Below, piece by piece: positions 43,539 to 63,991 of a stretch of DNA of 64,000 nucleotides. Numbering within the stretch: the stretch's first letter is position 1; the number at the start of each line of letters is the position of its first letter. A program made the position numbers and the translations under genes. The notes under the pieces are model-generated. The model ran no database searches and had not been told where the DNA came from. It saw only the letters and a list, made by a program, of their open reading frames with translations. Source of the stretch: Membranipora membranacea (lineage: Eukaryota; Bryozoa; Gymnolaemata; Cheilostomatida; Membraniporidae); the NCBI GenBank assembly GCA_914767715.1, contig OU612066.1, positions 19,998,283-20,062,282 on the forward strand. The letters are read 5' to 3'.

Positions 43539-43548
43539 CGGTTTCAGT

Positions 43549-43833
43549 TTACTTGAGATGTTGTAGAACTAACAGTCCGACTCTGGCCGGAGAGGCTCCA
43601 CATATCCAGGTTCTGATGGAGCCCAGCAGCGACTCAGTAGTTTCACTTGCCGCTTCATTCTCTATGAAAAACTTGCTGTTGATAATGTCACTTGTCCTTC
43701 TCACCTTGTCAGCTATATCTCTGCATACCTGTGCCTGATCTCGAGAGGTGGTTACAATGATATCATCCTGGATCAAAGCTGTTGGAATGATATTGTGCGT
43801 GCTGACGGCTGTTGATTGCTCTCTTCTCCCCAT
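43549..43833 (-). CDS. Small tandem-family protein with BH3-like segment, copy 1 (94 aa)
   Basis: A single-exon reading frame from an ATG (MGRREQSTAV) to a TAA that follows a terminal VLQHLK. Four related frames lie downstream. The shared core is SRDQAQVCRDIADKVRRTSD followed by IINSKFF, which aligns with the better BH3-like segments of copies 3 and 4; here the usual Gly of the BH3 Gly-Asp pair is Ser. The C-terminal third is a predicted amphipathic stretch (SLLGSIRTW, ARVGLLVLQHLK). There is no signal peptide or membrane anchor. Ten bases after the stop is a good donor (CCG|GTAAGT), so the stop may be followed by a 3'-UTR intron. Function is unknown; a Bcl-2-regulator role is only an inference from the motif. 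Conservation of start, stop and core across copies supports it as a real gene. Confidence 0.5.
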   Translation of the reverse strand: MGRREQSTAVSTHNIIPTALIQDDIIVTTSRDQAQVCRDIADKVRRTSDIINSKFFIENEAASETTESLLGSIRTWICGASPARVGLLVLQHLK

Positions 43834-44679
43834 GGTGTCTTAGTGCAAAGGATCTCTTATACATTTAATTGTATTTGTATGTTTAAACTGTCCTGCCAAG
43901 TTTGCACGATGCTTTGATTTGTGTTGGTGTACAGCTGGTGAATGCTAGAATGATTTGAATTCCAAATTATTTCTTACTTATAGCCAAGCTCGGATGAGTG
44001 CCTGTACTTTCCACCACATTTATATTATTAGTCATGGTAGCTTATCATTTTCATCACTATATGGCGTGAGTAATCATTTGATCAAATTAAAAGCCAGTTG
44101 ATGGGAATCCCATTCACCAATATGTGACAATTCAATTAGGGATTTTCCTCCCAGGTCATTGCGAGAAGTTAAGCTGATAATTGGTTGTATATTATTGTTA
44201 TTATCTGTCATTCCATGATAGATAAATAATATTTTAAATTACAATGACTCGTTGACCTGGCATTGAACCAAGATAAAAACTTTAAGAGATAAAAATTAAG
44301 CTATGCTCGTGGAAGATAAATATAAATTTCTGGAAGTGCTTCCATTTCCCCAACCATGACTGATTAGAAAACCTTACATGGCAGTTGGTATTTTTAGCTT
44401 GAACCCATTGTTGCACCATTTGTAGGGTACAGAAAATTCTAGAAGGAATTCAGTTATTCAAATGGTAGTCTAGGGATCCAGTACGTGCGGATTAATGTAT
44501 GGTCATACAATTGATAAAAGGAGGCAAAGGAAAGCACTGAGCGCAAAGGGGATAGAGGGAAAGGGGTTGTGTGACTAGTGAATGAATATGCATGCGTTGG
44601 TTTAAATTTAATTAAAGACTGTTCAATTTTTCGTTTATTTTCTAGAGTGTATCGGGTTTAGGTAACAGCAAAGGAGTAG

Positions 44680-44890
44680 GAGGTGGCTCAGCTGGTTAGA
44701 GCGCCTGTCTTCAGCAGGCAAGTGTTGAAGGTTGTGGTTTCCAATACCAATGCAGTCCACTGACTACAGGGACTGGTTGGACACCCAAGTGTGCTCTGAC
44801 ATGTCTTCAAACTGGATCAAATTTGCACGGACAATGTGGCCACGCCCACTATATCGCTGCCTATTCTTCGGAATGTGGTGAGTGACTGAA
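44680..44890 (+). mobile_element. tRNA-derived SINE-like element
   Basis: The 5' part resembles a tRNA. An A-box-like GGTGGCTCAGCTGGTTAGAG starts at 44682. It is followed by an anticodon-arm-like GCCTG-TCTTCAG-CAGGC, then a degenerate B box near 44729-44749 (GGTTGTGGTTTCCAATACC; the canonical GGTTCGA core is altered). A non-tRNA body of about 130 bases follows. The altered B box and missing acceptor pairing argue against a functional tRNA gene. Boundaries are approximate. Confidence 0.6.
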
Positions 44891-45194
44891 CATTGTGTTT
44901 ATTAACCAACATTTTAACCAACAAAGAATTCAGATAAGTCATGTGTCGGCCATATCTCAACATTATCAGCAGATTGATTCTTTTTTTCTCATGTCAATTT
45001 TTGCTCCATAATCAATCAACCAGCTGTAACTTCATCATTTAATTCAGGTATTTATTTGTACAACACATCAAAACATACCAGTAAAAAGTCATCATTTTTG
45101 AATAAAAATAATTCTAAGTAAAGTATTTTGGCGAAGAATATGACTCCGACATTCTGGTGAATACCGATTCACCCCAGCTGTGACAAATTAAATC

Positions 45195-45799
45195 TTAGTG
45201 ATTGTTAGTCACTGGCTTCAAGATTGGCCTCCAAACGCAACTGTTGATCTCTAGATCGTGGGGATGATCAGCCTTCAAAACAGGATAAGTAGTAGTCTCT
45301 AAATCATTTAAATGAATCTGACTCCCAAATGGTGTCAAAAGAGACTTTACTAGGGGAGAGTCCAGCCATAATATCTCAGGCAATTTTTAGTGGTAACGAA
45401 GAAATTTCCTTCAATTTTCCCCGCACTATGTCACAGTGGCCTTGATAAGTTCCCGTTAGTTTTCAACGTTATATCATCTTTTGGCACCAACAAATTGTGC
45501 CAGTCAAAACCAATGTTGTACTGGAAAGTAACCAGCTTCCTAGAGTGGAAATCCTTTGGCTTAAATGGTCTTTTGGGGGCAAAGTTTACTGAGTAAGACA
45601 ACCGGACCAGCCAATTTGAGGTGGTGAAAGTTTCAAAATTTTCGAACAGATATTCTGTTAGATGAACAACCTTGTCTGTTGAATCATCGATAGGCACCAT
45701 AGACATGATGCCATAGTCAGCCACTTCTGTTTGAAAGCTCAAGTGTATGTTGTTTCGATGAAATATCTTGATCTTTCCTGTAAATGTCGACTTAGACAC
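45195..45799 (-). other. Unassigned open frames, possible degraded insertion
   Basis: A minus-strand frame open for about 120 codons (45799 down to 45431, no ATG at its start) has protein-like composition (for example NFETFTTSNWLVRLSYSVNF, FQYNIGFDWHNLLVPKDD). After its stop, a second frame runs from about 45383 to 45195 and contains NSCVWRPILKP. Together they could be the two pieces of one broken coding sequence. I do not recognise the family. They lie in the 2-kb stretch absent from the neighbouring duplicate, so a mobile element or processed pseudogene is plausible. Confidence 0.25.
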
Positions 45800-47934
45800 A
45801 ATATTCGATTTTTATAAATTGTCAAATTTGACATAAAAATACAGGCACTCTGGTTTGTAGTGCAGTACCAATAGGTGGCAATTGCCCATCTAGCGAGAGG
45901 AACATGGCTCAGTATCATGGTGTACAAAACACATCCCAAGTGGGTTTGTTGGGTGAAGAAAAGAAATAATTTTTTTGTCTTTTTATTCAGTGGCACAATT
46001 GACCACTTGTATCCCCTCAAATTGAGACAAGGACTGTGTGCATGTGTTTAACTTTATAATTTCATCACTGTGAAACAGGCATTGTCGGAAACTTGTTTGT
46101 CAAATAACATGATCATGTACCTTATATCGAAACTTTTGATCTCACAAGGAGATGAGCCGCAAATTATGATTCAACTATGACATTAAGCGATCGGGATTTA
46201 TGATCAAGAGTCATGACGAATGTTCCGAATGAAAAGCTCCCAATTGCAAAACTGAGCAGGGTATTTGCATTATACCTTTAAATCACTGCATGTATTCAAC
46301 GGGAATCATTTCAAAGCATATGACTAGAGATTGATGTAACCTTATATTTCAATTGTACCATCCTGAAAATCAATTACAAGCGTTGGTGTTATACCTAAGG
46401 AGACATGTCTCAAACTGCTGGCTCAATGCTACACAACACAAAGAATATTGCACTTCTCAACCTTCCCAAATGCAAATCGTAATAATCTAGTTAGAACTGG
46501 AAGATAATAGAGTAAATCACATTTTGATATCATAATTGTCCTGATCTCAGGAAACTGCATTGTGGGATACTTATTAGCATTCCCGATTCAACGGGTCATC
46601 ACGTTGATTGATGTATGTAGACAGCGCTTGTGTCTAGTTGAATTATCTGCTGATGGAATGGTGGGAGAAATTTGGTTTGCTTACAGTAGGTGCGCTCACA
46701 TGGTGATCAAGTCTCATATATCTATGTTTCTCATACCTACGAAAGATAGTAAAACAGAGCAGAACTGACTATATTATAAGTTCAATGTCTTTTGCCAGTC
46801 TAATGCAGGAGTTTTTTCAGCTCAATGCATCAATCGTCAGTTCATTGGCTTGTATGAATTCCAGACTGAATTTTGGGAAACCTGTGTAATAATTTAACCA
46901 AAGCATCATATATGGTTAATTGATCGATCGCCAATCATTGTTCAAAATGTTTTTTGTCAACAAGTCAAATCCAGGGAGCAAATATCAGTGTGTTTAATTG
47001 GCAGAGAGCCACAAACCTCAACATGTCAGGCATGCTGGACTATTGACATGTACCCTGATTGTGTGGAAAAGAGGATTTCAGTCCCAGTTCTGCGCAAGCT
47101 GGGATCCCACTAACCTTTGTGGTGACTGGTGATGTTACTGTTATTGTTCCACCATGATGGTGTGTAGTAAATACTAATGTAGGAAACTCCCTTACGAATG
47201 AGGAAGAAAAATTACCTGCTTCAATTTAGGAAGAAAAGATTGGAAATTTATATTGAAACCAGTACATCCTAGTGGCAACAGGAATATCCCTTCAACAATT
47301 TTATTTCAAAATGTTTGATAGAGTAAAATCTAGATATATATTAGTCTGAGCCCTCCAGTCTTTTACCCCCCCCCCCCTCCCCTGTTAGGTTTTTTGTATA
47401 GGTAGTTTTTGTTTGTATATAATTGATATTCAATATTAGCGCTGGTTATACTGCTTCTTGTAGTTCTTTTCAGGTATTTTATTGGGTTTCTTATTTACAT
47501 CAGAGAAAGTTTCCTTCTTTGCTACCAATTATTACTGAGGCCATGTAGTTAAACATTACACACCCTTGATCTGTTGTTTGCCCTGTCTAACTCTTTTGTC
47601 TAACTGGTCTTAGAGTGTGTCGTCTGTCCATCTTGTTTGTTTCACAGTTGATACATAGTTTTGCCGTTGGCATGATTGTCATAGGGCATGGCCCAACTAC
47701 TACGGCTTATGAGGCGCAATAGTCTTTCATTCTAAAGAAAAAAGCAACCGCTGCATACCTATTTGCTTGCCTTTCATCGGGAGTCATCTAGTTTTACAAA
47801 ATGAGCAGTGAACTCTGAATAGTATCAAATCATTTTATAAAAAATGATTTTTCATTCAGCGACAGCTAATCTAAGATATCATGTATATCCCATTTTTTAA
47901 GTGCATGGCTGTTTCTCATCATAATAGTATATTG

Positions 47935-49330
47935 CAATGGTTGATAGTTGATTATGACTTTTTGTTTTTTAAAAGCTAAATTTTTCATAAACTTTTTCAT
48001 TCCCATATTTTTCATCATGAAATCATTTTGCAAAAATATTGAGCAAACTATAATTCAGTCGACCTTATGCATTGTGAGCTACTCATTTACTAATTGAGTT
48101 TTCTCACCAGGTGTTCACTGGTTGCATGTAACAATTTGCAGTGCGTTATTGTTTTAATTTTTTCAACACTTATCTGCTTTATTTTTTCGCTAAGGTTTCA
48201 TATAATAAAATTGGAGACCTTTTAATTATTTGGCCTCGAAATGATCAAGAACAAAAAAATCAGTGATAATTAAGAGTAAGTCATGAACGGCCAAACTATG
48301 GTAAAAGTGGTTAAGAAATATACATTATGAATAAATAAATAATAAAATGTAACATGTACCATTTAAAAAAAGAGAATGATAATTAAAAAATTGCACTATC
48401 TTTTGGCACATTGCTGCTGCCGTCTCAGTGTAAGAAAGAAAGTAAAGCTGTACAGAGTGATTATCATGTCTTTAGTTTTCTATTATAATACAATATCACA
48501 CAGTGGTGAGAATTCCACTTCTCGTTTATCTACATGTGTGTATCTCAGCTTCTCTATAAGTAGCTGAGAGTCTTGTATGTCATTGCGGAATTCTGCTGAG
48601 CAATTCAATATTGAGCACTCATTGCATCTATTAGTTGATGCTGATGATACAAGTAATGGTTTGCGTATAGATTTGTAGATATCCGTCTTCAGAATGTTTG
48701 CCTGGATTTATATTTGTATGGCATCTCTCAATATCTATTACTGCTATCAAAGACAGAAAGGATACATTAAAATATAAAATAAATAATATTAAAACAATAA
48801 TAGATCATATTTCAGCCATAAACTTGAGTTATTCGTTTGTTGATATTTGAATAAAAATATTCACAAGGTCAGTTGACCCTTGGCCTGTCTGATGAGAATA
48901 ATCGCGTATATTTACGTAGTTTTGCCCATGTGACAAAACCTGAATAATGATATTATGTGAACTCACCAATTTCAGTTTACTTAAGGTGTTGCAGAACCAT
49001 CAGGCCGACTCTGGCTGCAGAACCTCCGGTCAGCCAGGTTTTGATGAAGGCGAGTAGAGGTGTTTCTGTCTTTTCACTCTTTGTAAAGAACTCAGTGTTG
49101 ATAAAGGCACTGGTTATTCTTAGTTTTTCAGCTATCTCTTTGCATACCTGCGTCTGATCTCTAGACACCGTAGGCATGTCATTGTGCCCGATCACAAGCA
49201 CCTGCGGCATGGTGTCATGCATTCTGACAACTGTTGATTGTTCGGTCTTCCCCATATCTTAATTCAACTTGTATGGTAAAGTTTGCTAAATCGTCCTGCA
49301 AAATTTGCAACCTTTCTTTGATATGTGTTT
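47935..49330. repeat. Segmental duplicate carrying family copy 2 (matches 62595-64000)
   Basis: The block aligns, with divergence, to the last 1.4 kb of the window. Shared landmarks in order: GACTTTTT-GTTTTTTAAAAGCTAA (47955 and 62623), AAAATATTGAGC (48035 and 62702), GAGTTTTCTCA (48098 and 62797), TCTTTTGGCACA(T/A)TGCTGCTGC (48400 and 63091), AAGCTGTACAGAGTGATT (48444 and 63134), CAATATTGAGCA (48606 and 63311), then the coding copy and its flanks. The duplication therefore includes at least 1 kb downstream of each gene. Confidence 0.8.
48977..49255 (-). CDS. Small tandem-family protein with BH3-like segment, copy 2 (92 aa)
   Basis: Start MGKTEQSTVVRM, stop TAA after VLQHLK. Most similar to copy 5 at 63.8 kb (same length, shared MPQVLVxG, DMPTVSRDQ, IAEKLRIT, KTWLxGGSAARVGLMVLQHL). 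The BH3-like core is VCKEIAEKLRITSAFINTEF, where the Gly-Asp pair reads Ser-Ala, so the motif is degenerate. A strong donor (TTG|GTGAGT) lies about ten bases after the stop. No introns, signal peptide or membrane segment are visible. Because copies 2 and 5 differ at many positions yet both stay open from ATG to stop, selection on the protein is likely. Function unknown. Confidence 0.55.
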   Translation of the reverse strand: MGKTEQSTVVRMHDTMPQVLVIGHNDMPTVSRDQTQVCKEIAEKLRITSAFINTEFFTKSEKTETPLLAFIKTWLTGGSAARVGLMVLQHLK

Positions 49331-50669
49331 TGATTTAGCTGGTGACTGCTATATTGATTTAGCAAACTTGATTTTTCTCTTTTTATAGTGTAAGAATTAT
49401 GAGTATTTGTTTTTTCCACTCTTTCATCTATGATATTGGCCATATGTCATGATGTTTTATCATTTGAATCATTTACTATGGTGCAAGCAAGGAAGTCGGT
49501 GCAAGTGTACTACTATTTATATGACTAAGCCACTTCCTATTTAAAGCTTAGTTTATGGGATTTCAACTCACCTGGATTCTACAATGAGGAAATCACCTCT
49601 CAACGCATAATTGCTAGAAGTTTCTACTATCTATTGTCTATTGGTCAGTCAATGATACATAAATATTTTATAATTTACAATGACTCCTTTACCTGGCAGA
49701 GTGCCAGCAGTATGAAGCCAGGAAATCCTCAATCTTGGCAAATTCAAACAATTACAACTTTTCTTGTGGAAGAAAATTAGACCCTAATAGATTTTATGGG
49801 AAGTTGTTCCTCTTCCACTGTGATGACTGATAGAATACCATACATGATTGGCAGTATTGTTTGTATGAACTAAGAGTTTCATAAATGAAGGCGTGAATGG
49901 TTCTAGCACATTTTCATCTTAAAATTCTTCAAAGGCTCATTTTAAAACGTCAGATATTGAGTATTAAATATTGCAAATTGTTGGCAAAGGCTAACACAGT
50001 GTGTAATAATTAATAGTAAACAGAGGAATGACAACGACAAAGAAAAGCCACGTCTGGCTTGTAGTCTCATGAATTCAAAGAAAAGAGCATATCAAATATA
50101 AATAATATCATTGAGTCATGCACGCTCGCTCGGTTTGAGAGCACAGAAGAGTGCGAAGAATTAATCTTTGGCTGTTCTCGTATTCTCGTTCATGCTCTAC
50201 ACTCTTAAGGAGATGATTTACAGCACGTTTGTGGATTTGAGGCATCATGCAATCCTTTTTAGAACCAACCTCCGCCCTGGCCAGCCCCAACACGCCCCAT
50301 TCCCTTTTCATTGATCGATAAGCCATAAACGTTAGGCAAAGTTGAAAAAGCCTGGTGAGTCAGTTTGGCAGAGTAGCATGACTCAATTGTGAACAATTTT
50401 AAATCCAGTTTGCTCATTGACAACATTCATGTGGAACTTTTTTAATAACAATAATTCAAATATCAAAATCCAGGGAGCAAAGCAACTGTGGCTATAATTG
50501 GCAGACAGCCAAATCATTTGCGTGTAACTTGCAGCTGTTGGCTATATACGCATATCCTGGTTTGTGGAAGAGATGATTCCAGTTCTAATTCTGTTCAGTC
50601 TGGAATCCCAATACATTGATGGTGACTGCTGATGTTACCTGTGGCTTTTTGAGTATGCTAGGACGCATC

Positions 50670-50699
50670 GTGATGATGATGATGATGATGATGATGATG
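50670..50699. repeat. GAT/ATG trinucleotide microsatellite
   Basis: Ten uninterrupted trinucleotide units. Confidence 0.9.
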
Positions 50700-53067
50700 T
50701 GATGAAGAAAAATATACTTCAATATAAAGAAGAGGTAGGAAGTAATTGAAAAGGTGAGTGAAATCTGTCTTGCTGGTTCAACCAACGTTTGCTTGATCAT
50801 ATTGAGAGCTGTTATTCCTCAATCGCTGTTCGCAACTTAAGTCAGGTGTTTAAGCAAGTGGTGTTGCCAATCATCCCCCTCAAGCCCGAGCTGAGAGATG
50901 GCAAAGTTTGCCTTCATCACTAGTTTTTCGAATCGAGAGGGCTCACCTAGACAACCTTTTAGGTGAATCAGATTTTGCTTTTCTTAAAAAAATGCAGAAC
51001 CACCATTATTATAAATGTACTGAACATCCTCAGGAGTAGCCTTCTCTTGCCACATGAATGGACGACTCCAATTTAGTGTGGAAGAATGCACATTGATGAT
51101 TGTATCATAGAGTTTGGGGCATATTCTACACAATGTCTTACTATGTCCGACCTTCTCTGTTCACCCTTAAAATGATGGTATAGGCAGGTACTCAGCCCGT
51201 TTATACAGAACGACGGACAGCTGTGCAGCTGTTTGCTACGCAAATCATAATTATTCCAGCAACAATATTCTATCAAACTTTCACCATTAGCCTGACGCAG
51301 CAGCGTCAAAAATCTTAATCCAATTTTGTTTCTCTGTGGTAGTAAGCAGCTTTGCTCAATCCAATAAAAAGAGTTCATCGCTCAATCCTTCATACATTCA
51401 TGTCAAGTGGTCATGTTGAAACTGGTCTTACTGACCACATCCCTGTCAAAGATATTGTTCTTAGTTATTTTGTGATATTATTTGTACATACTTGCACACG
51501 CTTTTGAAGCTCCGTCTACATTTAGGAACAGATTATGTACTCTTTAAAGTACTTTAATGTTTTATAGCGGATGTTTTGAATCGATGCACTCATTTTCTGT
51601 AGTCTGAGCCTCCAGACTCTTGCCCCTCCTTTCCCTGCCCGACACCTCCCTCCCCTGATAATTATTTTGTAACTGAATTGAGTTATTGATAATATTAAAT
51701 AATGGTTGTTATAGGTAGAGAGGTCGACATGTGACATAGACAAAGGTGTTTCAGGAGGATAACCTATGATTTTGTAGGAATTATAATCTTTATGGTAAAA
51801 TTTAGAAAACTCCACAGAAGAAATATGACTGAGAAGTCATGAGTCACTCTGGTTGTCTATACAGAAATAATCAGCACAAGGGAGTCATACTATCAAGTTG
51901 AGTCATGAACATGGTGACCGGTATCTATTTCTAAAAATTATTTTGAGATTAGTTGTTCGGACACTACAAAATAACATTATTCAGTTTCTGTTTCAGGAAA
52001 AATATATAACTAATGGAGAGATAAGGGTCTATTTTTAAGCTTATCTGCCCTCAAATATTTTCCACTATTTTCATTCCTGATCACACCTATGCCTGTCATG
52101 AATCCGATGCTCACGGCTTGCTAACACACAGGTTAACGAGGAAGAAGATTTAGCTAATATATATAGGAGGAAAAACCGTAGTGAAACCACCAGATTACTT
52201 AAAAATTGCAATCAACCTTGCGGGCAAAACTGCGACAGGGAACTCCTTTTGTTTTAGAGGTATAGAGTCATAGTGTAAAATTTTATTCAATAACAGTGAG
52301 TAGTGAGAGGGAGGCTTCAGCCAATGAAAGTTTTCCTGGCTATTGTTTTTAAACTATTATTATCAAGTTCTTGGTTACGGAAAACCCTTGTTGACAATGA
52401 GTAATGCCATTGTGACCATGATGTGTCATCAAAATTAAAGTGTTTTCACCTAACGGTATCAATGAGTAAGGCCATTGTGAACATATGTATGCATGTTGAG
52501 TATAATTCTTGCATGGTTTTTGTCACACATTTAAAATTTAAATTGCTATGCATCTTAGATTTTCCAAAGGTTTCAAACCTTTAAAAAGGTAGGCAAGCAG
52601 TGTTATGCACCGATGATTTTTAGCATGATAGAGAATTCAAATACCAGTTTTAGCAGGTTTTAGATGCTCATGACGATGGTAAATTGGTCAACCAGGGAGT
52701 TTGGGACCGAACTCCCTGGGTCAACGGCCGTTGTCTTTGGAGTTGTCCATTGCCGCTAGCTGATATCTAGCGCTAAGTGAAATACTGCGCTGTAGTAGCG
52801 TGATGCATGCAGCGGCCCCACTTGCAGTGAAGGTGGTCAGGGGTGGGAGGGAGACACATAGCGCTTATGATTACAAGATAGCAGCCTAAGTGTTCAGATG
52901 AACACGAGTGTGTATTTGTGGCATTGAATCATCAATATTCATTTAAAATGATCTTTTGGTCGTGTAATGCCTCAAGCAGGCACTTGCAGCCATCACAGCA
53001 CTTAGACTTATTGTATTGATGCGATCAAGCTTAAGCTATGCAACTATAGACTAGTCCGACATGATTG

Positions 53068-53386
53068 CACTTAGGTTCCATGGGTCGATTTTGTGGTTCA
53101 CTCCAATTTCGAATGGTTAGAATCCATGATGGGAAAAACATGAAAAGAATCTGCCGCGTCCGGGACTTGAACCCCAGACTCCCGTGTGCAATCCCTTTGA
53201 AGGCATTGTATGCAAGCGCGCTAACCATTCAGCCCCGACCACACTTACGACATGGGTCGAATAAACACGGTATGCATATTCGTGTCCAAAAAGTCAATCG
53301 TCACAATCGGAATTTGACTTTAATGCCATTTCCATGGGAAGATTACTCCCGAAATCCTTACATAATTGATCCATGGAACCATAGTG
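53068..53386 (-). mobile_element. Non-autonomous CACTA-ended element with tRNA-like core, copy A
   Basis: The ends are inverted repeats: CACTTAGGTTCCATGG on the left and its near complement CCATGGAACCATAGTG on the right. Inside, on the minus strand, is a tRNA-like segment with an A-box-like GGCTGAATGGTTAGCG and a B-box-like GGGGTTCAAGTCCC. The same ~320-bp element occurs inverted at 55992-56330. CACTA termini are typical of the CACTA/EnSpm (CMC) superfamily of DNA transposons. I see no transposase. The three bases flanking this copy do not match cleanly, so its target duplication is uncertain. Confidence 0.75.
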
Positions 53387-54345
53387 ATTGAGTTTTGAAA
53401 AGTATTTTTATTCCACACATTAGAAACCCATGTCTTCATTTGTTTTTGTTAGTCCATACGTATTCAATATCCCTGATATTGTGATACACCCTTATACGTA
53501 GCCTAAACCTATAGTTCTATGAATTGACACAATGCAAACAACAAAAACACACAATTCAGACTATTCTTCGCAGCTATAGAACTTTGTTTGGCCAGCTTTC
53601 ACCAACCCTACTTAAACAGAACGAGTATGTGGAAGTTTATAGCCCCTATGTATTGTTTATTGGTACCATAGAATAACATGAACAAATTGAAGACTTAAAC
53701 AATAAAAATATCTCCATGTAAAACAAAAGACAACAGTAACAATAGTAGTTGTATCGGAGGTGAACAAAAAATCAACAGGATAACGGTTTTGTAAAACTTT
53801 ACACAAAAAAATTAATAACACTATAAATATGATTAAAAGGCTGTTGCACCATTTTGATTGCAGAAACAGTTATTGGCACACACATTCCTTATACTGGCTG
53901 AGACAATATAAACTATAAAATATTAGCTCAAAAATAGGAAAAGCTGGGTTCTCAGAGAGAAGCAAAAAGATAAATTTTTGGAGTGGATACTTTTGCTGGA
54001 GATATATAAATAATAAATATATAACTGTCTTTATATAACTCTGATCCTTTTTACATCGTTGCTCATCGTTCATTATGTAAATATGTCGAAACACTCGAGA
54101 TCAATGTGGAAGTATGGGATTAATGACTAGAATCCGTAGCTCCATCAGAATCAGTCATCCAATCAGTTGTATCATACTGAAAAAATACGATGAAGATATG
54201 GTTAGGTTTTTTAGACTTGAGATTGATTTTCATAGGTGATCTTGCTTTGCATCCCAGGAAAAACTTGTCTTTTAAAATTTTGAGCAGCGTTTTTGTGAAC
54301 AAAGTTTGAAGATATTGTCTTACTCTACTCACCTTTTTTTTCAAT

Positions 54346-54665
54346 TCATTTGAGATGTCGTAGCATCATCAGACTGAATGTAGCTGGAGAAGCTCCAGAA
54401 GTTCCAGACAACAGGATGTGACCTGCTCCAGCAGTGATTCTGTAGGTTTGTGTTGTGTTATACTTTCAGAGAGAACCTCTCGGTCTACAATGTCACCAAT
54501 CTCCCTCAGTCTTCCAGCTACTTCTCTATAACCGTCCACCTGATCAGGTGAATGGAGTTGGTTGTCGTACGGAGGATCCATGTTGATATTGAGAGGTAGT
54601 GCCATTGGTCTGATTTCCTGCAGACAGCTTATTGCGGTTTGTTTATCTTCAAATCGCCTACCCAT
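54346..54665 (-). pseudogene. Small tandem-family gene, copy 3, frameshifted; strongest BH3-like motif
   Basis: Start MGRRFEDKQT. Residues 49-64 read VAGRLREIGDIVDREV, a very good match to the BH3 pattern (hydrophobic-x3-Leu-x2-Ile-Gly-Asp-x-hydrophobic-Asp/Asn-Arg) and close to the BAK-type Gly-Asp-x-Ile-Asn-Arg core. Compared with copy 4 a single base is missing at about 54410-54413 (ACAACAGG here, ACAACCAGG there). The frame therefore shifts after VTSCC and stops early at 54369. The original end (SLMMLRHLK then TGA at 54346-54348) survives in the other frame. A donor (AAG|GTGAGT) follows 12 bases after that old stop. The BH3-like part is still encoded upstream of the shift, so a truncated 98-aa product is possible. 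Sequencing error should be excluded. Confidence 0.5.
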
Positions 54666-55411
54666 ATTATATAATACTGTTTAGAAGTTTTACAGAGTGT
54701 TAAAATTTGACAGCTATGAGCTTTGTGATGTTCTCTTTTTGAGGTTTGAATTTGTTCTAAAGCTCAACCTCACCCACATTTTTTATATAGTAACAGTGTT
54801 CGCAGTTTGCGCTATCGGGAAAGTTTATTGTGTGGCTAAATTTTCCAGTGACTACCTCAGACACATTGTATTGAACGAGCATATCAAACTTTATCTCAGA
54901 TGACTTCCCTCCTACAATCACTGGTTAGTTGCCACCTTATCTCGTTTGTTATTTAACCATGACAAATGTTGGTACGTGGTCTCTGACTAATATTTACTAA
55001 TCCACAAGGTAAGGTAGGGATTTCCTGAAGCATTCTGCTTTACAATCTATATTATGATAGGCATACCAGAACATGACAGGTATTGTGTTTGAGAAGGTGT
55101 TTTTCTGGTGCCTGGATGAGCTGTTGGTATAGCATAATTCATTTGTAATACACACTGTTTGCTCTTTTGATTACGAATAATGTGCAATACTTAGAAAAAA
55201 GAAAATTTAAACTATTTGATTTGTAACATCTCAGGGTGTACAAGGAAAATCCATGTAGGTAGCCATTGTAAAACTGTTCTGACGAATAAACCTGGCCTAT
55301 ATACATGGGAATAACCTTTAGATTTCACCAAGAAATCATGTTGTTAGCAATAACATTTGCTTGAAGCTTCAAATTTAAAAATAAACCTCTCCCATCTATA
55401 AACTACCTAAC

Positions 55412-55568
55412 GCTGTAAATTGCATGGTCATCTCAAATCATTATGAATTTTCAAGCTATGCTTGTTATGCAGAGTAAGGTCTATGTAACCAATGAGGAGA
55501 CTACTCTGCATAAAAAGCACAGCTTGAAAATTTATAATTTATAATGACATGGCCATGTAATTTACAGC
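55412..55568. repeat. Imperfect foldback element
   Basis: Left arm 55412-55475 (GCTGTAAATT...) and right arm 55503-55568 (...AATTTACAGC) are complementary with several mismatches and small indels, around a loop of about 27 bases. Confidence 0.75.
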
Positions 55569-55991
55569 ACCAAATATTTTATCCACAGAATCATGATGGA
55601 GCATTGGAACTCACTTATATTGCATATTGAATTTTGTTGCCACTTTGCTATGGGTTTTATTCGTATTCAAACATAGATTGGACCTTTTCCTAGTGCTACA
55701 TGGTTGGATGCCATGGGTAAAACACTTCAGTAGAAGGGAACCACACACAGGGGCAGTAATAAAAGGAGTGATTACACCATCTAAAACCTGAAATCCTGTG
55801 ATTACAGTATTGGAGCAAAGTAGCTAGAATCAGGAATCCCCCTTGTTTTCCGCTTCAGTATATGCTGTGTCATTTACCACCATACATGACACACCAGAGT
55901 TTCTCTACATAACTCTAGTGTCTGAAGAGCACGTGATCATAGATTGTAGGAGTGGCACGACATCATTATCAATATATGTCTATGACACATT

Positions 55992-56330
55992 CACTATGGT
56001 CCCATGGATCGATTATGTAAGGATTTCGGTAGTAATCGCCCCATGGAAATGGCATTAAAGTCAAATTCCGATTGTGACGAATGACTTTTTGGACGCGAAT
56101 ATCCAAACCGTGTTTATTCGACGCATTTCCTAATTGGCGCCGTGGCTGAATGGTTAGCGGCGTTGCACACAATGCCTTCAAAGGAATTTAACGCGGGAGG
56201 CCGGGGTTCGAATCTCGGCCGCGGCCGATTCTTTTCATGTTTTTCCCATCATGGGAATGGTTAGAATCCACTGGATTCTAACCATTCGAAATTGGAGTGA
56301 ACCACAAAATCGACCCATGGAACCATAGTG
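55992..56330 (+). mobile_element. Non-autonomous CACTA-ended element with tRNA-like core, copy B
   Basis: This copy is inverted relative to 53068-53386. Ends are CACTATGGTCCCATGG and CCATGGAACCATAGTG, flanked on both sides by ATT, which fits the 3-bp target duplication of CACTA elements. The core at 56137-56222 looks like a class II tRNA: A-box-like GTGGCTGAATGGTTAGCGGC and B-box-like GGGGTTCGAATCTC. Near 56252-56288 an extra inverted repeat (GAATGGTTAGAATCCA/TGGATTCTAACCATTC) forms an internal hairpin absent from copy A. The tRNA-like core may act as an internal RNA polymerase III promoter. I do not call it a working tRNA gene. Confidence 0.75.
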
Positions 56331-56850
56331 ATTGACTTAGATATCAAGTTGTTTTATGCTTGTCCTAGGAATGACAAGACTTTATTGAGATACAATAATG
56401 ATACCCGAATGGAACTGGAAAGAAAAAGCTGACTGGACTTCCTCAAAAAGGCAAATATACCACCTCACATATGAAGTTTCGTCTTGTTATCAGATTATAT
56501 AGTTGTAGGTATTTTCCTTGTAAAGCTTTAGGTGTCCGTGCGGTATCCCCCTCTCTTATCAAATTTTTGCTTTATCATTCTCCCTGAAAACCTTATCAAA
56601 ATATAATAAGTGGAATACAAAATGATGCTAATGAGAAAAGGCCTGGGTTCTATTGGTTACATGTTGACCGAATCCGATGCTTGCCACATTCTACGATGTG
56701 GCAATAAAGGGAAATAAACTGATCCTCAGTTGAACACACAAATTCTACTCATTATCAGATAGTGAATATCAGCTGTCAGGGATATCCAACATGTCAGTTA
56801 TTTTGTTTCTAACTGTCACATGCCTCATCAACACAGTTTCCTTGAACCTT

Positions 56851-57014
56851 CATTCAGAATTTATAATATGGATAGTATTAAACTATCCATATTATAAATT
56901 CTGAATGAGCCCAGAAATAAATTGAAAACTCAATAGAATGTATGATAGTGACAGTACTATAATAGTACTGTCACTATTATACATTCTATTGAGTTTTCAA
57001 TTTATTTCTGGGCT
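56851..57014. repeat. Two adjacent long hairpins
   Basis: Hairpin 1: arms 56851-56876 and 56882-56907, exact complements, loop about five bases. Hairpin 2 follows at once: arms run from 56908 and end at 57014, about 52 bases each with only a small imperfection near TATGATAG/CTATTATA. The two stems together occupy 164 bases with almost no unpaired sequence. Confidence 0.9.
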
Positions 57015-58264
57015 AAAGTTATTTCCTAATTGATCTAAACTTTAAGTAGCTGATGTATTGCTGATGTTTCGCATAAATACATACATAATTTCATCACTAT
57101 CACCAATCACCAGCCCTAATGTCAGATGACCTTCTATAGGAAACCGTGCTACGGCATAAAAACCTTTGCTAAGCAAAGCTTACTTGCTCTGAATCTAAAA
57201 TACTTGATTCTGATGGTGAAGTACATTGCATCCTCTGAGGGAAAAATACTTAGAAATGAATGAACTACTAAAAATTCAGGGTCATCCCACATGTCTGATA
57301 GTCTTATTGTGACGTCTTAGCTGACAATTCAGTTATCCCTGGAAACTTATATCAGGCTATCAATGTCAGTAGAAAGACGAGCAGGCCAGGATGACACACA
57401 ATATGATGAGGTATCTAAATATGGCTAATCTTTGCAAATAATTGTCTTTGATGTTTTACATTAAAATTCATGCCGCTTTTCTTTTCTTGTTTGAGGTTAT
57501 AGTATTCATAAAAATCAAAGTTTCTGACATGTCCAGGTTATGTGGGGTTCAATTTCTTGAACACTCAGTGGCGCTCTCTTGACCTTCTCCAAAAGTTTGT
57601 ACTCTTTAGAAATCCAGTGTTTGATTCATTGAAGCTTATTGTAATCAGAATCGCATGATGCTTGATTCATTTTTCATTTACTGAAGTAAAACTACTTTAC
57701 ACTATTGCATAGCACTGATTTACTGCCTCAGGCTGTTGTCCTGAAACACTAAACTTGCAACTCTGCAAGTTATCAAAATCCCAAACTCCCTGTGCAGACA
57801 ATCAAATGATTGTATTTTTGAAAAATTATGAATCGTCTATTTTTATGACGTAGTAGCATAACTCCCAAAAGATTTATACCAAAAAATAAACAAGAGAAAA
57901 CTAAATTACATCAGTGATTTTTTTCCACCCTCACTTAAAAACTTACAATGAATGTAAATCTGCTATGACGATCAAGGGACATAATTTTTGCCATGAACCC
58001 TTACTCATTTTGATCCTTTGTAGGTGGCTCGCTGTGCCTAAAACACACAACAAACAAAAATCTACACTTCATGGTCATGCACAATAATGCAGTTGAAAAC
58101 TCTTAAAATCTATGATTGCCAGCCTCAAAAACAGAGTTGTGATGTAGAGAAACATGAAAACTTTGTCAAATAAATATTGATTATCAGATTTTATATGGCG
58201 CACTCAACCTGGTTTTTTGTTCCCGGCTGCCACAATGAGCCGAATCTCAATGTGATATTTGATT

Positions 58265-58642
58265 TACCGTAATCCCTCACCTATAAGTCACCGGACTTAT
58301 AAGTGAATCACCCCCCTCAGAAAAAATAAAAATGCTCCAGCTATAAGACACCCCACAGCTATAAGACACCCCACCGCTCTAAGACACTCACTACACTACA
58401 CTCACTACAAATGAACTAAGTAGTTTTGGGAAAAAAACTGCCCTCAGTGGCTTTCGAACTCACAACTCCATGTTTACAAATCGAACACTCTACCACTGAG
58501 CTATTCATCTTCGGTGATTGTAAGAGGTTTTGGTTCAAACTAAATATAATAATGCTTCAAATGATAGTCGCGTCTATATACTACTCTCTTATAGCCGCCT
58601 TCACTTATAAGTCACGCGATCTATAGGTGAGGGATTACGGTA
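58265..58642. mobile_element. 378-bp terminal-inverted-repeat element with tRNA-like core
   Basis: Ends TACCGTAATCCCTCACCTAT and its reverse complement at 58623-58642 form inverted repeats of about 21 bases. The outermost TA may be the target site, as in Tc1/mariner-type insertions. Further inside, ACTTATAAGT words repeat at both ends, and CTATAAGACACCCC is repeated in tandem. On the minus strand the middle (about 58435-58510) resembles a tRNA: A-box-like TAGCTCAGTGGTAGAG, an anticodon loop TTTGTAA (UGU, Thr-like), and B-box-like GAGTTCGAAAGCC. No acceptor-stem pairing is seen, so it is a tRNA relic. Confidence 0.8.
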
Positions 58643-61384
58643 TTTGTCCATACAGTATGATATAGATAGGCAGGTTATTTACCTATATTATACGTAGGGA
58701 AACTGTCGGGCGGGTGGCAAGAGTTTGAGGGGGGCTCAGATTAGATATGTAGAATACTATCAGGTTAATACATCATGCATTGGTAGGATTTGTAACTTTC
58801 CCAAGTTCAGAGGGGGATAGCATATGCTATTTGCTGCAACAGCTTTGGCACGGACACCTTGACAAAATGGTGAATCGGCCTTTGCTCGAGGCTAGCATAC
58901 AAAGCAGGGCTCTACATGACCAATGACCTGCCAGTGCCAATAACAGATCAATGATGCCTCTTACCTCGTAAACATATTTGTTTGGTGATGTGAAGTAGGA
59001 TAGCGGTCAAGTAACGCAATTTGTGCTGGACAGAGCTGCTGCAAATAGTTCTAGTTCATGCTGTGTAACTGCATATATCAAGCGGTCAAATGAATAGCTT
59101 AACATAATATCAAGTTAAGAAAAAATATTTTTCTAGAATTTATCATGACAAACATCACATCTGCTGCTGAAATTTACTGTTAGCAGTAAATTCACTTTGT
59201 AAACTTGTATACTACTATGAACTTTATTTCGCATAGGGTCATATGTCGTAAAAATTGGTATGGTATCCGAGGCGATAGCCTTCGATGAACTTGGGGCTGA
59301 AGGGGGGGGGGGGTCCAGCGTTGTAGTCATTAAAGTTTGGCAAAGACTGATAGAGAACAAGAGTTTACACACACTTTCCAAAAATTCTATCATAGTTTGC
59401 AACTGAGTAACAATTAGCTTCAGTTCTACCAACCGAATTCCTCCAAGGCAATGAATAGTCAGGCAGAAAAGGTTTTAAAACTTTTTTTTATGGTTCCCAG
59501 GCTAAACAGCTGTCCTGATAAAATCAATAACTCGATACCTGTAAGAAATAATCAGGATGAAACTTAGGATATTTCTCAGACATAACAACTTTCAAGTCTC
59601 ATGTGGAAAAATAAGTAGCTATTTTCAATTATTTAGTAAACACATTTTGAGCCAAGATGCTCAATCTACGCTAGGAGTGTGATATTATTTTATGAGAGCA
59701 ACCGGTACTGCAGAATACAAAATTTTATTATTGTCACTACATGAAAGTTTTAAGCACAGCAGAGGCTTTTCAGAGACATACATCTTAATTTGCCTATGTA
59801 TAATTACAGGAACATTTCCTGTAGTTTTCTTAATCAGACCTGATCTACCTTTGGCTCTAAATGTGAGTTTATTTCACCACAGCGTGGTTCCACACATTAC
59901 CTAGATTGCACTAGACAGAATATAACTCTGAAGTTATGTTATGATCATGAGTGTCATTGCGATGCCAAGCTGCATAATTTTCACATCATTGAATTAGCCG
60001 AACCACTATCTGTTAGGAGGAATTGTTTTCGTCACCATGAGGTGACAGCAGACCTTGCCTTGCCTCTAAGGTTATGCCTTTAGTAGGTATATCAATTGAA
60101 TGAATGAATTGGTGACCAAGGATTCACCTCTGACTTTGTTGAATTGTCCTTTAATAACCTAAACCATCAACAAAGTGCTGACGGTGTGGCAAATAAATAG
60201 CCATATTGCAACCCAAGTGGACCAAAGATTCCTAATGTTCTAACCCCTCTAGTGTTATGACTGAGTTATCTGTTGTTTAATTGGCTGAGCTGTACGCTGC
60301 CTCATATATGACCTCCAATTATAGGTGATGCTGTTTATCATGCTTTTAGAATTATTGATTTATTGTATTGCTCTCTCTAATGTTAAAACAAAAGTGAATA
60401 CATGTTTACAGCTCAATCGTGTGTACTTGTATTTTGCAGAGTTACTCATGAATTTGTATCCGTTTCAGCCTTATTAGCCAGTTAGTGTTACTGTATCATT
60501 GCCCTGCCATCATATATGAAGTACATGGGTTTGAAAATGATTATTTTTGTGTCTTGTAAAGCTGCAATTCACAGAAAAGTTGTTTATGGTGATATTTTTA
60601 TGTAGCCTGTGGTTTTCTCAAGAACAGATCTCCCAATTTTTACTCTGATAAGAACATCACTGTGATATTAATTGGATATAAACCTAGCTGTTTGCTTTGA
60701 TAACACTAATTTTTGCATGAATTGATTCGAAATTTGATTTAAAATTTGAAAAACATAATTTGAGTTCACTAACTCATCAGGATAGTCTCAAGCCTGCTTC
60801 ATTTATTCAAATGATATTATCAAAGCTTCAATAATAACCTGTTGATGGTTTCGGTTTATTTGTAAAGCTGCAAATGTTTCCAAAATAGAAAAAAGTAGAA
60901 ATTACACAAAAAATTGTCTAGGATGATAAATAGGACTTATACAGAGCTGAGGTTATTAATGTCCCTGTCCAAACATAAAAAGGAAAAGAGAGTTTGGAAT
61001 AAGGCACCATTAACATGAGATTACTTTGGAATTGGAAGAAACTTTGGCACCTTGTTCTAAAAATGAATAAAAAACTGATGCTGATGTTTATATGGCAGTT
61101 TTTAGAGCATACCACATCATTTTGCACATGAGACAATTATGGGAATATCTTAGTAAAATTGTTTTGCATGTTTCAGGCCACAAAAAGACGGTCATGTGAC
61201 AAGCCTAATTTTTATGCGGATCAGGGATAGCGCTACAGATTGGCAGGTTAATATACTCAGAAGTGACCACCTGGAGTTATATTGTCAGCTGTCAGTGCTC
61301 TTACTATTGTAGGTTCGAGCTATCATCGGTCACCCTCAAAAAGCAATGGAAGTGATCATCAGTCCGTAGTGTCTAAAACTCACT

Positions 61385-61426
61385 ACTTTTCAAATTCATT
61401 TGAGACTTTGCAACACCGTCAGACTG
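61385..61426 (-). pseudogene. 3'-end remnant of a small tandem-family gene
   Basis: On the minus strand a short stretch encodes a relic of the conserved C-terminus (SLTVLQSLK then TGA) followed by a flank (AATTTGAAAAG) like that after copy 3. No upstream coding part is attached, so this is a broken sixth copy or the end of a partial duplication, only about 250 bases beyond copy 4. Confidence 0.5.
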
Positions 61427-61672
61427 CTATGACTTGACAAGACTTTATTTGGAAAAACTATTTTTGGAGGTCTTATCCACATCAGAGATACTGCTAGAGA
61501 CTGTCAGTTTGGTAGACATAAAGGAGTGGGTACCTGGAGTAACAAAAAACATTCATGTTCATGAGATCAGCTGAAAGCGACTGTAGATTTTGACTAGTAC
61601 TAGCACCATGACAGATTTTCAGATCTTCGACGGTAATGTTAACCATTGCAGCATCTAATCCCACAAACAGAT

Positions 61673-61996
61673 TCACTTAAGATGTTGTAGCAACATCAGA
61701 CTGACTTCAGCTGGAGAAGCTCGTCTCAGAACTCCCTGAGTACCAGACAACCAGGATGTGACCTGCTCCAGCAGTGATTCTATAGGTTTGTGTTGTGCTA
61801 TACTCTCAAAGAGAACCTCTCTGTTTATAATGTCACCAATCTCCTTCAGTCTATCAGCTACTTCTCTGTAAACCTCCTCCTGATCAGGGGAGTTAACTGG
61901 GCTCTCGTTCTGTAACTCCAAACGGTTATCTAGAGGTAGAGCAATTGGCCTGTGTTCTTGTGCATCTCGAAGAGCTATATGCTCACATTTGCCCAT
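61673..61996 (-). CDS. Small tandem-family protein with BH3-like motif, copy 4 (107 aa)
   Basis: Start MGKCEHIALRDAQEHRPIAL, aligned with the copy 3 start and chosen for that reason; the frame stays open for about 24 codons further upstream without an ATG. Residues 46-61 read VADRLKEIGDIINREV. This has the Leu-x-x-Ile-Gly-Asp-x-Ile-Asn-Arg arrangement of BH3 motifs, very like BAK. After it come a helical stretch (PIESLLEQVTSWLSG) and the family C-terminus (RASPAEVSLMLLQHLK, TGA). There is no membrane anchor, and no BH1 or BH2 motif that I can see. In known BH3 proteins this helix inserts into the groove of Bcl-2 relatives; that role here is inference. Unlike the other copies it lacks the consensus donor just after the stop. 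Confidence 0.6.
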   Translation of the reverse strand: MGKCEHIALRDAQEHRPIALPLDNRLELQNESPVNSPDQEEVYREVADRLKEIGDIINREVLFESIAQHKPIESLLEQVTSWLSGTQGVLRRASPAEVSLMLLQHLK

Positions 61997-63701
61997 TTCG
62001 TTTCCAATTTGTGATCGCAGTTGGTGCAACTTATACCTGGTCGAGTTGTGAAGATTTAGTCGTTGCAATCTGGTATGAGCTTACTTCAGATGTTTGCTGT
62101 ATATGAGTTATGAATTTATCTGTTGCTATTCTACGATACATCTTATATATACAAGCGGCTACTGCACTCACCCAACCTTACATGACACCTCATTTGACCT
62201 ATTTGATACAATCGTTGTAAACATTCTTAGCTACGCTGCACTCAAATCAATCAATAGGGCACACTTCTTTGTTATTGTTTTGGTCATTTGGCCGAACAAC
62301 TTTGGAAATCCCCATCAATATGCGTTAAAAGTGGGCCTGCTATTATATTTGCAGTATTGTATTGGGGCACAGCCAAGGTTTTGAGTTATGACACTATCTA
62401 TTTTGGTAGAGTGTGCAAGATGCAAAATCAATATGATTTCATGATTTGCAAATCTATCATCAATCATCAAACAACTAAAAAAAATACCATACAAACAAGA
62501 CAATATTATATTTTACAATTTCTGTGATAAATTATTCCCTGTCAATAAGCTGATATGAAGCGGAATGAATGATGGACCCTGACCATCAAAATAGTCAATC
62601 GTTATGGTTGGTAGTAAATTCTGACTTTTTAATTCTTAAAAGCTAACATTTTTTATACACTTCTTCACGTCCATAGATTTCATCATTTAATCCTTTTTGC
62701 CAAAATATTGAGCGAATTTATCATTCATTACAGCCCCAATATAATCTGGTCGACCTCATCCTGGTGCATTTTGTGGCATACTCATTTACTGATTGAGTTT
62801 TCTCAAATGTTTTCTAGTAGCATGCAACAACTTCATCAGCAATGAGTTATGGTTTTAGTTTTTTTTTACTTATCTGGTTTATTTTTTCCATGAGTTTTTA
62901 TAACAAAATTTAAGTAATTGTAACTAATTGTTTACCTCAAAATGATCTGTAACCAAAAAAATCATTCAGCGATAATTAGTAGTAAGTCATGAAGGTGCCA
63001 AAATATGGGGAAGTAAAAAATTATACATCAATAAATTATAGAATGTAACATGTAACATTTAAAAAAACATAGTTTTTGAAAACATGCACAATCTTTTGGC
63101 ACAATGCTGCTGCGTATTGAGTTTCAAAAAAATAAAGCTGTACAGAGTGATTTTCATGTTTTTAGTGTTCTATAATAATAGAATATTTACAGCGATGAGG
63201 ATGCTTCACTACGAGAAACAAAAAATAAGCAATGGTGTTTGTAGTTTAGGTTGGCATGTTTATGTAGATATGTAGATTTTTTCGTCAATGCGAAATTTTG
63301 TTGAGCATTTCAATATTGAGCAGTCATTTCATCTATAAGTTGATCTGATGATGTCAGTAATGGTAGTTTAGGTTATAATGTCTGTGTATAAGATTGTGTA
63401 GATTTCCCATTCAGAATCAGAATTAGTGCCTAGATTAGCATTATAATATGGCACTCCGCTGTTAGTCCTCAACATATAACTGCCTATCAAAGAAAGAAAG
63501 GATACTTTAAAACATATAAATCACGTTTCAGCTTCATTCTATTGTCAACATGAATTATTGGTTGGCTGAAATTTAAACAAAAAATACAAGGTCAGCCGAC
63601 ACTTGACCTTTGCCCGGTTTTTTGAGATAAATCTGAGATATTTATTTATACAACTTTCGCCTATACGACATAAGCAGAATAATGATATTATGTGAACTCA
63701 C
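61997..63701. other. Spacer between family copies 4 and 5
   Basis: From about 62595 onward it is the diverged duplicate of 47935-49330. The first 600 bases (62.0-62.6 kb) show only AT-rich sequence with short frames and no family resemblance that I can support. Confidence 0.5.
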
Positions 63702-63712
63702 CTATATTCAGT

Positions 63713-63991
63713 TTACTTGAGATGCTGCAGAACCATCAGGCCGACTCTGGCTGCAGAACCTCCAATCAGCCAGGTTTTGATGGAGGCGAGTAGAGGTTTT
63801 CTCGTCGTTTCACACTTTGTAGAGAACTCAGTGTTGATAAATTGACCGGTGATTCTCAGTTTTTCAGCTATATCCTTGCATATCTGCTTCTGATCTCTAG
63901 ACACAGTAGGCATGTCATCACACCCTAACACAAGCACTTGCGGCATGATGTCATGCATTCTGACAACTGTTAATTGCTCAGTCTTAACCAT
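63713..63991 (-). CDS. Small tandem-family protein with BH3-like segment, copy 5 (92 aa)
   Basis: Start MVKTEQLTVV, stop TAA after VLQHLK. It is the closest paralogue of copy 2, and the surrounding 1.4 kb is duplicated with it. The core reads ICKDIAEKLRITGQFINTEF: Gly of the BH3 pair is present but Asp is Gln. A strong donor (ATAG|GTGAGT) lies about ten bases after the stop. The start codon is only nine bases from the window end, so the promoter and any 5' exon are outside view. Function unknown. Confidence 0.55.
   Translation of the reverse strand: MVKTEQLTVVRMHDIMPQVLVLGCDDMPTVSRDQKQICKDIAEKLRITGQFINTEFSTKCETTRKPLLASIKTWLIGGSAARVGLMVLQHLK

What the first reader, a model, noticed from the sequence alone, without database searches (positions are those of the whole stretch)
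43549..63991. Tandem family of small proteins with a BH3-like helix
Five related minus-strand frames of about 92-107 codons (one frameshifted) and one remnant lie within 20 kb. All share an MG/MV start, an SxDQ segment, a helix of the form (I/V)A-x-(K/R)-(L/V)-(R/K)-x-x-(G/S)-x-x-(I/V)-(N/D), and an LxHLK end followed by a stop. In copies 3 and 4 the helix is a textbook BH3 core (LREIGDIVDRE, LKEIGDIINRE). In Bcl-2 biology such helices trigger or block mitochondrial apoptosis. A lineage-specific tandem expansion of BH3-only-like genes would be new to me. The homology of the five frames is seen in the sequence; the BH3 function is inference from a short motif.
Basis: partly seen in the sequence, partly recalled or inferred. 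Interest (0 to 1): 0.9.

Follow-up and report, generated by a model that had tools for sequence, protein, structure and literature searches.

The report
Bryozoan tandem array of BH3-like genes
A moss animal carries a cluster of about 29 copies of a small gene whose proteins mostly contain a textbook copy of the helix that switches on cell death in animals, which points to an unusually enlarged set of death-trigger genes, although binding and function are untested.

Summary
The five window copies are the edge of an array of at least 29, all found at C2:20.042-20.274 Mb. Of these, 27 are intact open frames of 92-108 residues, one is frameshifted (window copy 3) and one holds two stops. Frames are under purifying selection (dN/dS about 0.5; neutral simulation). 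In 24 of 28 copies a TATA box sits 80-160 nt upstream. The full BH3 core is in 22 of 27 intact frames. In the window only copies 3 and 4 have it; copies 1, 2 and 5 are degenerate. Pfam's BID model is the nearest family but below cut-off. No Bcl-2 fold was detected. The genome encodes Bcl-2 proteins with BH1/BH2. Fourteen metagenome relatives exist, twelve outside the genome's main clade. Best reading: BH3-only-like death ligands expanded in tandem. Binding and expression are untested.

The parts
43549..43833 (-). copy c1, 94 aa, intact; BH3 core degenerate (VRRTSDIIN)
48977..49255 (-). copy c2, 92 aa, intact; BH3 core degenerate (LRITSAFIN, Asp lost)
54369..54665 (-). copy c3, 98 aa as read; BH3 core intact, reading frame shifted by one base after it, so the conserved C-terminus is lost
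61673..61996 (-). copy c4, 107 aa, intact; full BH3 core (VADRLKEIGDII)
   Evidence: Pfam BID 17.2 bits against cut-off 25
63713..63991 (-). copy c5, 92 aa, intact; BH3 core degenerate (LRITGQFIN, Asp lost)
49380..49387 (-). TATA-box-like TATAWAWR, 132 nt upstream of the c2 ATG
   Evidence: coordinates converted by hand
54782..54789 (-). TATA-box-like TATAWAWR, 124 nt upstream of the c3 ATG
   Evidence: coordinates converted by hand
62144..62151 (-). TATA-box-like TATAWAWR, 155 nt upstream of the c4 ATG, inside a promoter block shared with many copies
   Evidence: coordinates converted by hand
43533..43539 (-). splice-donor-like GGTAAGT just after the c1 stop codon (probable 3'UTR intron)
48961..48967 (-). 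splice-donor-like GGTGAGT just after the c2 stop codon
54327..54333 (-). splice-donor-like GGTGAGT downstream of c3
63696..63702 (-). splice-donor-like GGTGAGT just after the c5 stop codon

Best explanation
Most have a TATA box of their own, and most encode a BH3-only-like protein: a fast-changing N-terminal tail of about 35 residues, a long BH3 helix, and a conserved C-terminal helical segment of about 45 residues. Shown: copy number, intact frames, purifying selection, a promoter block shared by many copies, BH3 core in most copies, no detectable Bcl-2 fold, and BH1/BH2-bearing Bcl-2 proteins in the same genome. Inferred: the BH3 helix docks in the groove of those Bcl-2 proteins and so promotes, or in the degenerate copies no longer promotes, mitochondrial cell death; the different promoters and N-terminal tails let different signals call on different copies.
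For: 29 copies on one 232-kb stretch, 27 intact. Pooled over nine sister pairs, dN/dS is 0.48 (N-part) and 0.52 (C-part). Under a neutral simulation on a third-position tree a mean of 0.3 of 25 frames stay free of stops. The core pattern ([VILAMF]xxxLxx[IVLMF][GAS]Dx[IVLMFY], written by me from recall of the BH3 consensus) is in 22 of 27 intact genome frames and 12 of 14 metagenome relatives, against 137 of 54,000 shuffles and 1 of 245 other frames of 80 aa or more in the region (the call prints 2 of 246, but one of the two is a family copy that my filter missed). Pfam BID matches 32 of 38 members at E <= 10, best 3.1e-4; for c4 the match covers the BH3 segment. BID chains are 6 of the 12 PDB sequences found with the family profile, E 0.16-1.7. 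AlphaFold2 puts a continuous helix over the BH3 segment, pLDDT 83 in its best block of ten. TATAWAWR lies at -160 to -80 (range chosen after seeing the alignment) in 24 of 28 copies against 5.9% of random 100-nt windows. Bcl-2 proteins with INWGR and WINQHGGW motifs are encoded at C3 and C4, with a further group of matches on C7.
Against: The BID match is below Pfam's cut-off (17.2 against 25 bits for c4), and of the five window frames only c4 shows it. In PDB searches other helical proteins score like BID or better: a designed repeat and BACH1 above BID with the profile; a designed repeat and a bacterioferritin above BID with the 26-residue BH3 segment; bacterioferritin above BID with the c4 frame; and with the C-terminal 72 residues of one copy, bacterioferritin and LTV1 but no BID. 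So part of the score is generic amphipathic helix. Five of 27 intact copies lack the core, three of them in the window. The conserved part reaches some 45 residues beyond the BH3, which a bare BH3 ligand would not need. No transcript, binding or cell data were available. Copies are related, so their counts are not independent, and the low third-position divergence of the C-part (0.24 against 0.44 in the N-part) suggests gene conversion, which would also keep a motif uniform.
Confidence: 0.6

Rival explanations
1. The helix resembles BH3 only by convergence. The family is a small helical protein of another kind, for example a stress or immune effector whose amphipathic helix binds something else.
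For: Short motifs recur by chance; designed repeats, BACH1 and bacterioferritin score like BID or better in PDB searches. The conserved region runs well past the BH3, and the last 37 residues match nothing in the PDB. Five intact copies keep their frames without the core.
Against: The core positions (h1-h4, Gly, Asp) are kept together in 22 of 27 copies and in 12 of 14 metagenome relatives, and the BID model is the only Pfam family hit by most members (the next, SNF2_assoc, hits 11 of 38).
Confidence: 0.3
2. The family is a shortened multi-motif Bcl-2 or BID protein: BH3 plus the first helices of a Bcl-2 fold, possibly acting as a decoy or dominant inhibitor.
For: After the BH3 two to three further helices are predicted; the nearest Pfam model, BID, has a Bcl-2-like fold (recalled).
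Against: PF00452 is not among the families matched by the 38 members up to E 10 (HMMER's filters drop most very weak matches). hhalign gives probability 0.65% against two Bcl-2 proteins of the genome. No NWGR- or HGGW-like motif is seen in the alignment; pTM 0.26 and 0.35. The BID match of c4 covers profile positions 69-101 of 191.
Confidence: 0.08
3. The copies are decaying duplicates of one active gene, without function of their own.
For: Two of 29 copies are broken and five of the 27 intact ones have lost core residues.
Against: 27 of 29 frames intact, dN/dS about 0.5 between sister pairs, neutral simulation leaves 0.3 of 25 intact, promoter block shared by many copies.
Confidence: 0.02

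Closest known systems
BID (Pfam PF06393), BH3 segment
   Same: S-x-x-Q-E-x-(V/I)-x-R-x-(V/I)-A-x-x-L-x-x-(I/V)-G-D-x-(I/M), aligned
   Different: below the family cut-off; no BID fold found downstream; [quoted passage not shown]
BH3-only proteins of invertebrates (EGL-1, schistosome and Hydra BH3-only)
   Same: short proteins with one BH3 helix and no Bcl-2 fold
   Different: the table passage of PMC10192318 lists 4 in Hydra and 2 in C. elegans; here at least 22 intact core-bearing copies lie in one tandem array
multi-motif Bcl-2 proteins (PF00452)
   Same: carry a BH3 and occur in this genome
   Different: BH1 (NWGR) and BH2 (GGW) not seen here; no profile match

Membership tests
BH3-only proteins | BH3 core: four hydrophobic positions, invariant Leu and Asp, small residue before Asp (consensus recalled) | tested here: met
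   22 of 27 intact genome frames and 12 of 14 metagenome relatives; not met in c1, c2, c5, g20073105, L023, P0002, P0014
BH3-only proteins | no BH1/BH2 and no Bcl-2 fold | tested here: met
BH3-only proteins | largely unstructured outside the BH3 | tested here: inconclusive
   N-terminal part of low confidence, but helices predicted after the BH3 and conserved
BH3-only proteins | binds the groove of a pro-survival Bcl-2 protein and promotes death | not testable with these tools
   no complex prediction or assay available
BID (PF06393) | score above the Pfam gathering cut-off | tested here: not met
   c4 17.2 bits against 25; bits of the other members were not shown, best E 3.1e-4; a PF06393 search of the whole genome found nothing, but rang in no control either
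multi-motif Bcl-2 | BH1 and BH2 motifs, PF00452 match | tested here: not met

The most novel reading that the evidence does not exclude
A colonial animal has evolved the largest known set of BH3-only genes: at least 22 intact, mostly separately promoted death ligands with variable N-terminal tails and some core-dead members. They were enlarged independently in at least two lineages, beside its own enlarged Bcl-2 and caspase-like repertoires, so that different signals can kill particular tissues or polypides (recycling, infection or non-self contact) through one shared mitochondrial switch.
Probability: 0.28. Interest if true: 0.85.

Novelty: new variant of a known kind. Interest (0 to 1): 0.62.

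Why it matters
In the passages read, Hydra has four and C. elegans two BH3-only genes, and the lophotrochozoan ones named are from flatworms, with others called only potentially present (PMC8998228). A tandem, selected array with at least 22 intact core-bearing copies in a bryozoan would show that the trigger layer of the mitochondrial death pathway can expand like an immune gene family. It offers a natural panel of BH3 sequences, some with lost core residues, for testing binding specificity. It also offers a genetic entry to the polypide recycling of bryozoans.

Tried and rejected
Sponge origin was my first guess. A sponge-marker pattern found one site, reading CGSCYAFS, which looks like a cathepsin to me. 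A gutless annelid was considered and one paper search made, without result. A coding second exon: donor-like GTRAGT begins 12-31 nt after the start of the stop codon in 12 of the 26 copies examined, and a conserved block about 0.6-1.2 kb downstream of the stop holds no shared reading frame by eye; I read this as a 3'UTR intron. Other genes interleaved: among frames of 120 aa or more between 20.042 and 20.165 Mb I saw none that recurs apart from family frames and frames antisense to them, and one reverse-transcriptase-like frame at 20123788. Between 20.17 and 20.23 Mb there are other frames, among them two near-copies of a repeat-rich one at 20185512 and 20199560. C2:20.230-20.258 Mb was not read. 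A viral source: none of 63 pattern matches in viral contigs encodes a relative. N-myristoylation: Gly2 is kept in 26 of 27 intact genome frames and in 11 of 11 metagenome proteins taken of 14, but the Ser/Thr at residue 6 that I recall for the consensus is in only one genome frame, so I do not claim it. The novelty searches listed no title or abstract start describing a bryozoan BH3-only family; two searches showed 15 of 79 and 15 of 205 papers.
Full report
What was checked. The five frames are present at the stated places and are homologous. With family copies as queries, only these five places in the window match, so the sixth 'remnant' is not confirmed. Copy 3 is shifted by one base after the BH3 helix and has lost the shared C-terminus; copies 1, 2, 4 and 5 are open to the common LxHLK stop.

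Where it is. The window is G000:C2:19998283-20062282 in an assembly of 339,339,785 bases and 18 contigs. Contig lengths seen are C2 39,529,243, C3 35,043,895 and C4 34,998,303 and C7 28,508,536. The genome note of Membranipora membranacea lists chromosomes 2, 3, 4 and 7 as 39.53, 35.04, 35.00 and 28.51 Mb and a total of 339,374,674 bases in 21 scaffolds (PMC10290214, first of three parts of the text read). I take the organism to be this bryozoan; this is an inference from sizes, not a sequence comparison.

The array. Copy c4 finds 29 places, all on C2 between 20,041,834 and 20,274,081; c2 finds 26 places, all in the same stretch. From the coordinates, seven lie on the minus strand, then twelve on the plus, seven on the minus and three on the plus. 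Twenty-five frames inside the 200 kb read are intact, plus L022 and L023 outside it; c3 is frameshifted and L026 has two TGA codons. The search scores only its best candidates, so 29 is a lower bound. The stretch C2:20.230-20.258 Mb was not read.

Are they genes? Pooled over nine sister pairs dN/dS is 0.48 for the N-terminal part and 0.52 for the C-terminal part. On a third-position tree, neutral simulation leaves a mean of 0.3, at most 6, of 25 frames free of stops; the 25 were taken because they are intact, and 27 of all 29 are. Upstream, a block with a TATA box (TATATAAAAGG in one common form) and neighbouring sequence is shared by many of the 18 copies aligned. TATAWAWR lies at -160 to -80 in 24 of 28 copies examined (26 in the 200 kb read plus L022 and L023; L026 not examined; not in g20041834, g20061998, g20106487 and g20164844) against 5.9% of random windows; the range was chosen after seeing the alignment. 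A donor-like GTRAGT begins 12-31 nt after the start of the stop codon in 12 of 26 copies (for c3 counted from the homologous end). No transcript was seen, so an upstream coding exon cannot be excluded.

Is it BH3? The aligned core reads VADRLKEIGDII in the commonest form. The strict pattern is in 22 of 27 intact genome frames and in 12 of 14 metagenome relatives. It occurs in 137 of 54,000 shuffles of family proteins and in 2 of 246 frames that my filter classed as other, one of which is a family copy that the filter missed. Copies without it: c1, c2, c5, g20073105 (Asp to Ala) and L023 (Asp to Tyr). Pfam BID is hit by 32 of 38 aligned members at E <= 10, best 3.1e-4; c4 has 17.2 bits against a cut-off of 25. 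Of the five window frames only c4 hits it. Of the 12 PDB sequences found with the family profile at E <= 10, six are BID chains (E 0.16-1.7); above them stand a designed helical repeat (E 5.8e-5, no single significant stretch) and BACH1 (E 0.071). With the 26-residue BH3 segment alone six sequences are found, two of them BID; a designed repeat and a bacterioferritin rank first and second. With the 72-residue C-part of one copy, bacterioferritin and LTV1 are found and no BID; with the c4 frame, bacterioferritin and a BID BH3 construct. So the BH3 match recurs but is weak by score, and generic helix content adds to it.

Structure. AlphaFold2 with 38 sequences gives helices at 39-67, 70-84 and 95-106, mean pLDDT 62, pTM 0.26. 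With the C-terminal 72 residues and 27 sequences it gives helices at 2-32, 37-50, 52-57 and 60-71, pLDDT 69, pTM 0.35. Neither model is a confident fold. The fold search tool was off. hhalign against two Bcl-2 proteins of the same genome gives probability 0.65%.

Partners. PF00452 has 28 exon-level matches, ten marked over the cut-off alone or with neighbours, at about eight places. L050 and L051 carry BH4-like, BH1 (INWGR) and BH2 (WINQHGGW) segments (motif names recalled) and match PF00452. On C7 nine matches lie within 18.136-18.236 Mb, five with E below 1e-3 but only two over the cut-off, and two of the nine places hold stop codons; the one I read has SWGR and EHGGW. Caspase-like PF00656 gives 145 matches at E <= 1e-3, with 140 of 515 first-look candidates scored; many places hold stop codons, so this is not a gene count. 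These matches suggest, and do not show, a death system enlarged as a whole.

Relatives. Fourteen metagenome proteins were found. In a tree of 41 proteins (27 genome, 14 metagenome) P0002 pairs with c5 and P0014 with L023, probably the same or a very close species. The other twelve lie outside the clade of 24 genome copies and P0014 (support 87/82, under the star threshold), in several groups joined by open forks, so they are not shown to be one clade.

How it probably works. Shown: a selected gene array, mostly with TATA boxes, coding for short proteins with a BH3 helix. Inferred from the established Bcl-2 pathway: the helix occupies the groove of pro-survival Bcl-2 proteins. Inferred with less confidence: core-dead copies act as non-binding or altered members, and variable tails and promoters give different triggers. 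A biological use is suggested by the repeated polypide recycling of bryozoans, after which brown bodies are stored in the zooid (one passage of PMC7317743, which does not mention apoptosis).

Literature. [quoted passage not shown] among lophotrochozoans schistosomes are named and others called potentially present; the word stem 'bryozoa' does not occur in PMC8998228. PMC10192318 (passages) lists four Hydra BH3-only genes and two in C. elegans. Searches listed no paper on a bryozoan BH3-only family; of the last two I saw 15 of 79 and 15 of 205 entries. The library holds only open-licence papers.

Verdict. The BH3 reading is the best available (0.6) but rests on a short segment; the rival of a convergent helix is serious (0.3).

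Noticed in passing
G000:C1, C3, C5, C8, C9, C10, C11: Very many caspase-like PF00656 matches (145 at E <= 1e-3, 140 of 515 candidates scored), in groups along several chromosomes, many with internal stops.
   Followed up: no
G000:C7:18.136-18.236 Mb: Nine Bcl-2 (PF00452) exon matches in 100 kb, five with E < 1e-3 and two over the cut-off: a possible tandem cluster of Bcl-2 genes.
   Followed up: partly
L023:1498-1821 (+) against P0014: The genome copy reads IGYILN where the near-identical metagenome protein reads KGDIIN: the BH3 Asp may vary within or between populations.
   Followed up: no
L034:3105-3425 (-) against window 61673-61996 (-): Recent duplicate of c4 (93% identity) in which the BH3 Asp has become Ala.
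   Followed up: no
window 53124-53393 and 55985-56254: 270-nt inverted repeat, 87% complementary, on both sides of c3; perhaps a mobile element.
   Followed up: no
window 13728-14660 (-): FAM220 domain (1.1e-40) joined to ankyrin repeats in one open frame.
   Followed up: no
window 19894-20703 (+) and 1533-1982 (+): Strabismus/Van Gogh exon and condensin II CAP-H2 N-terminus.
   Followed up: no
G000:C2:20185512-20186252 and 20199560-20200336 (+): Two near-copies of a repeat-rich frame between the main part of the array and its three outlying copies.
   Followed up: no
family residue 2: Gly2 is kept in 26 of 27 intact genome frames although the tail around it changes fast; possible N-terminal modification or degron, untested.
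   Followed up: partly
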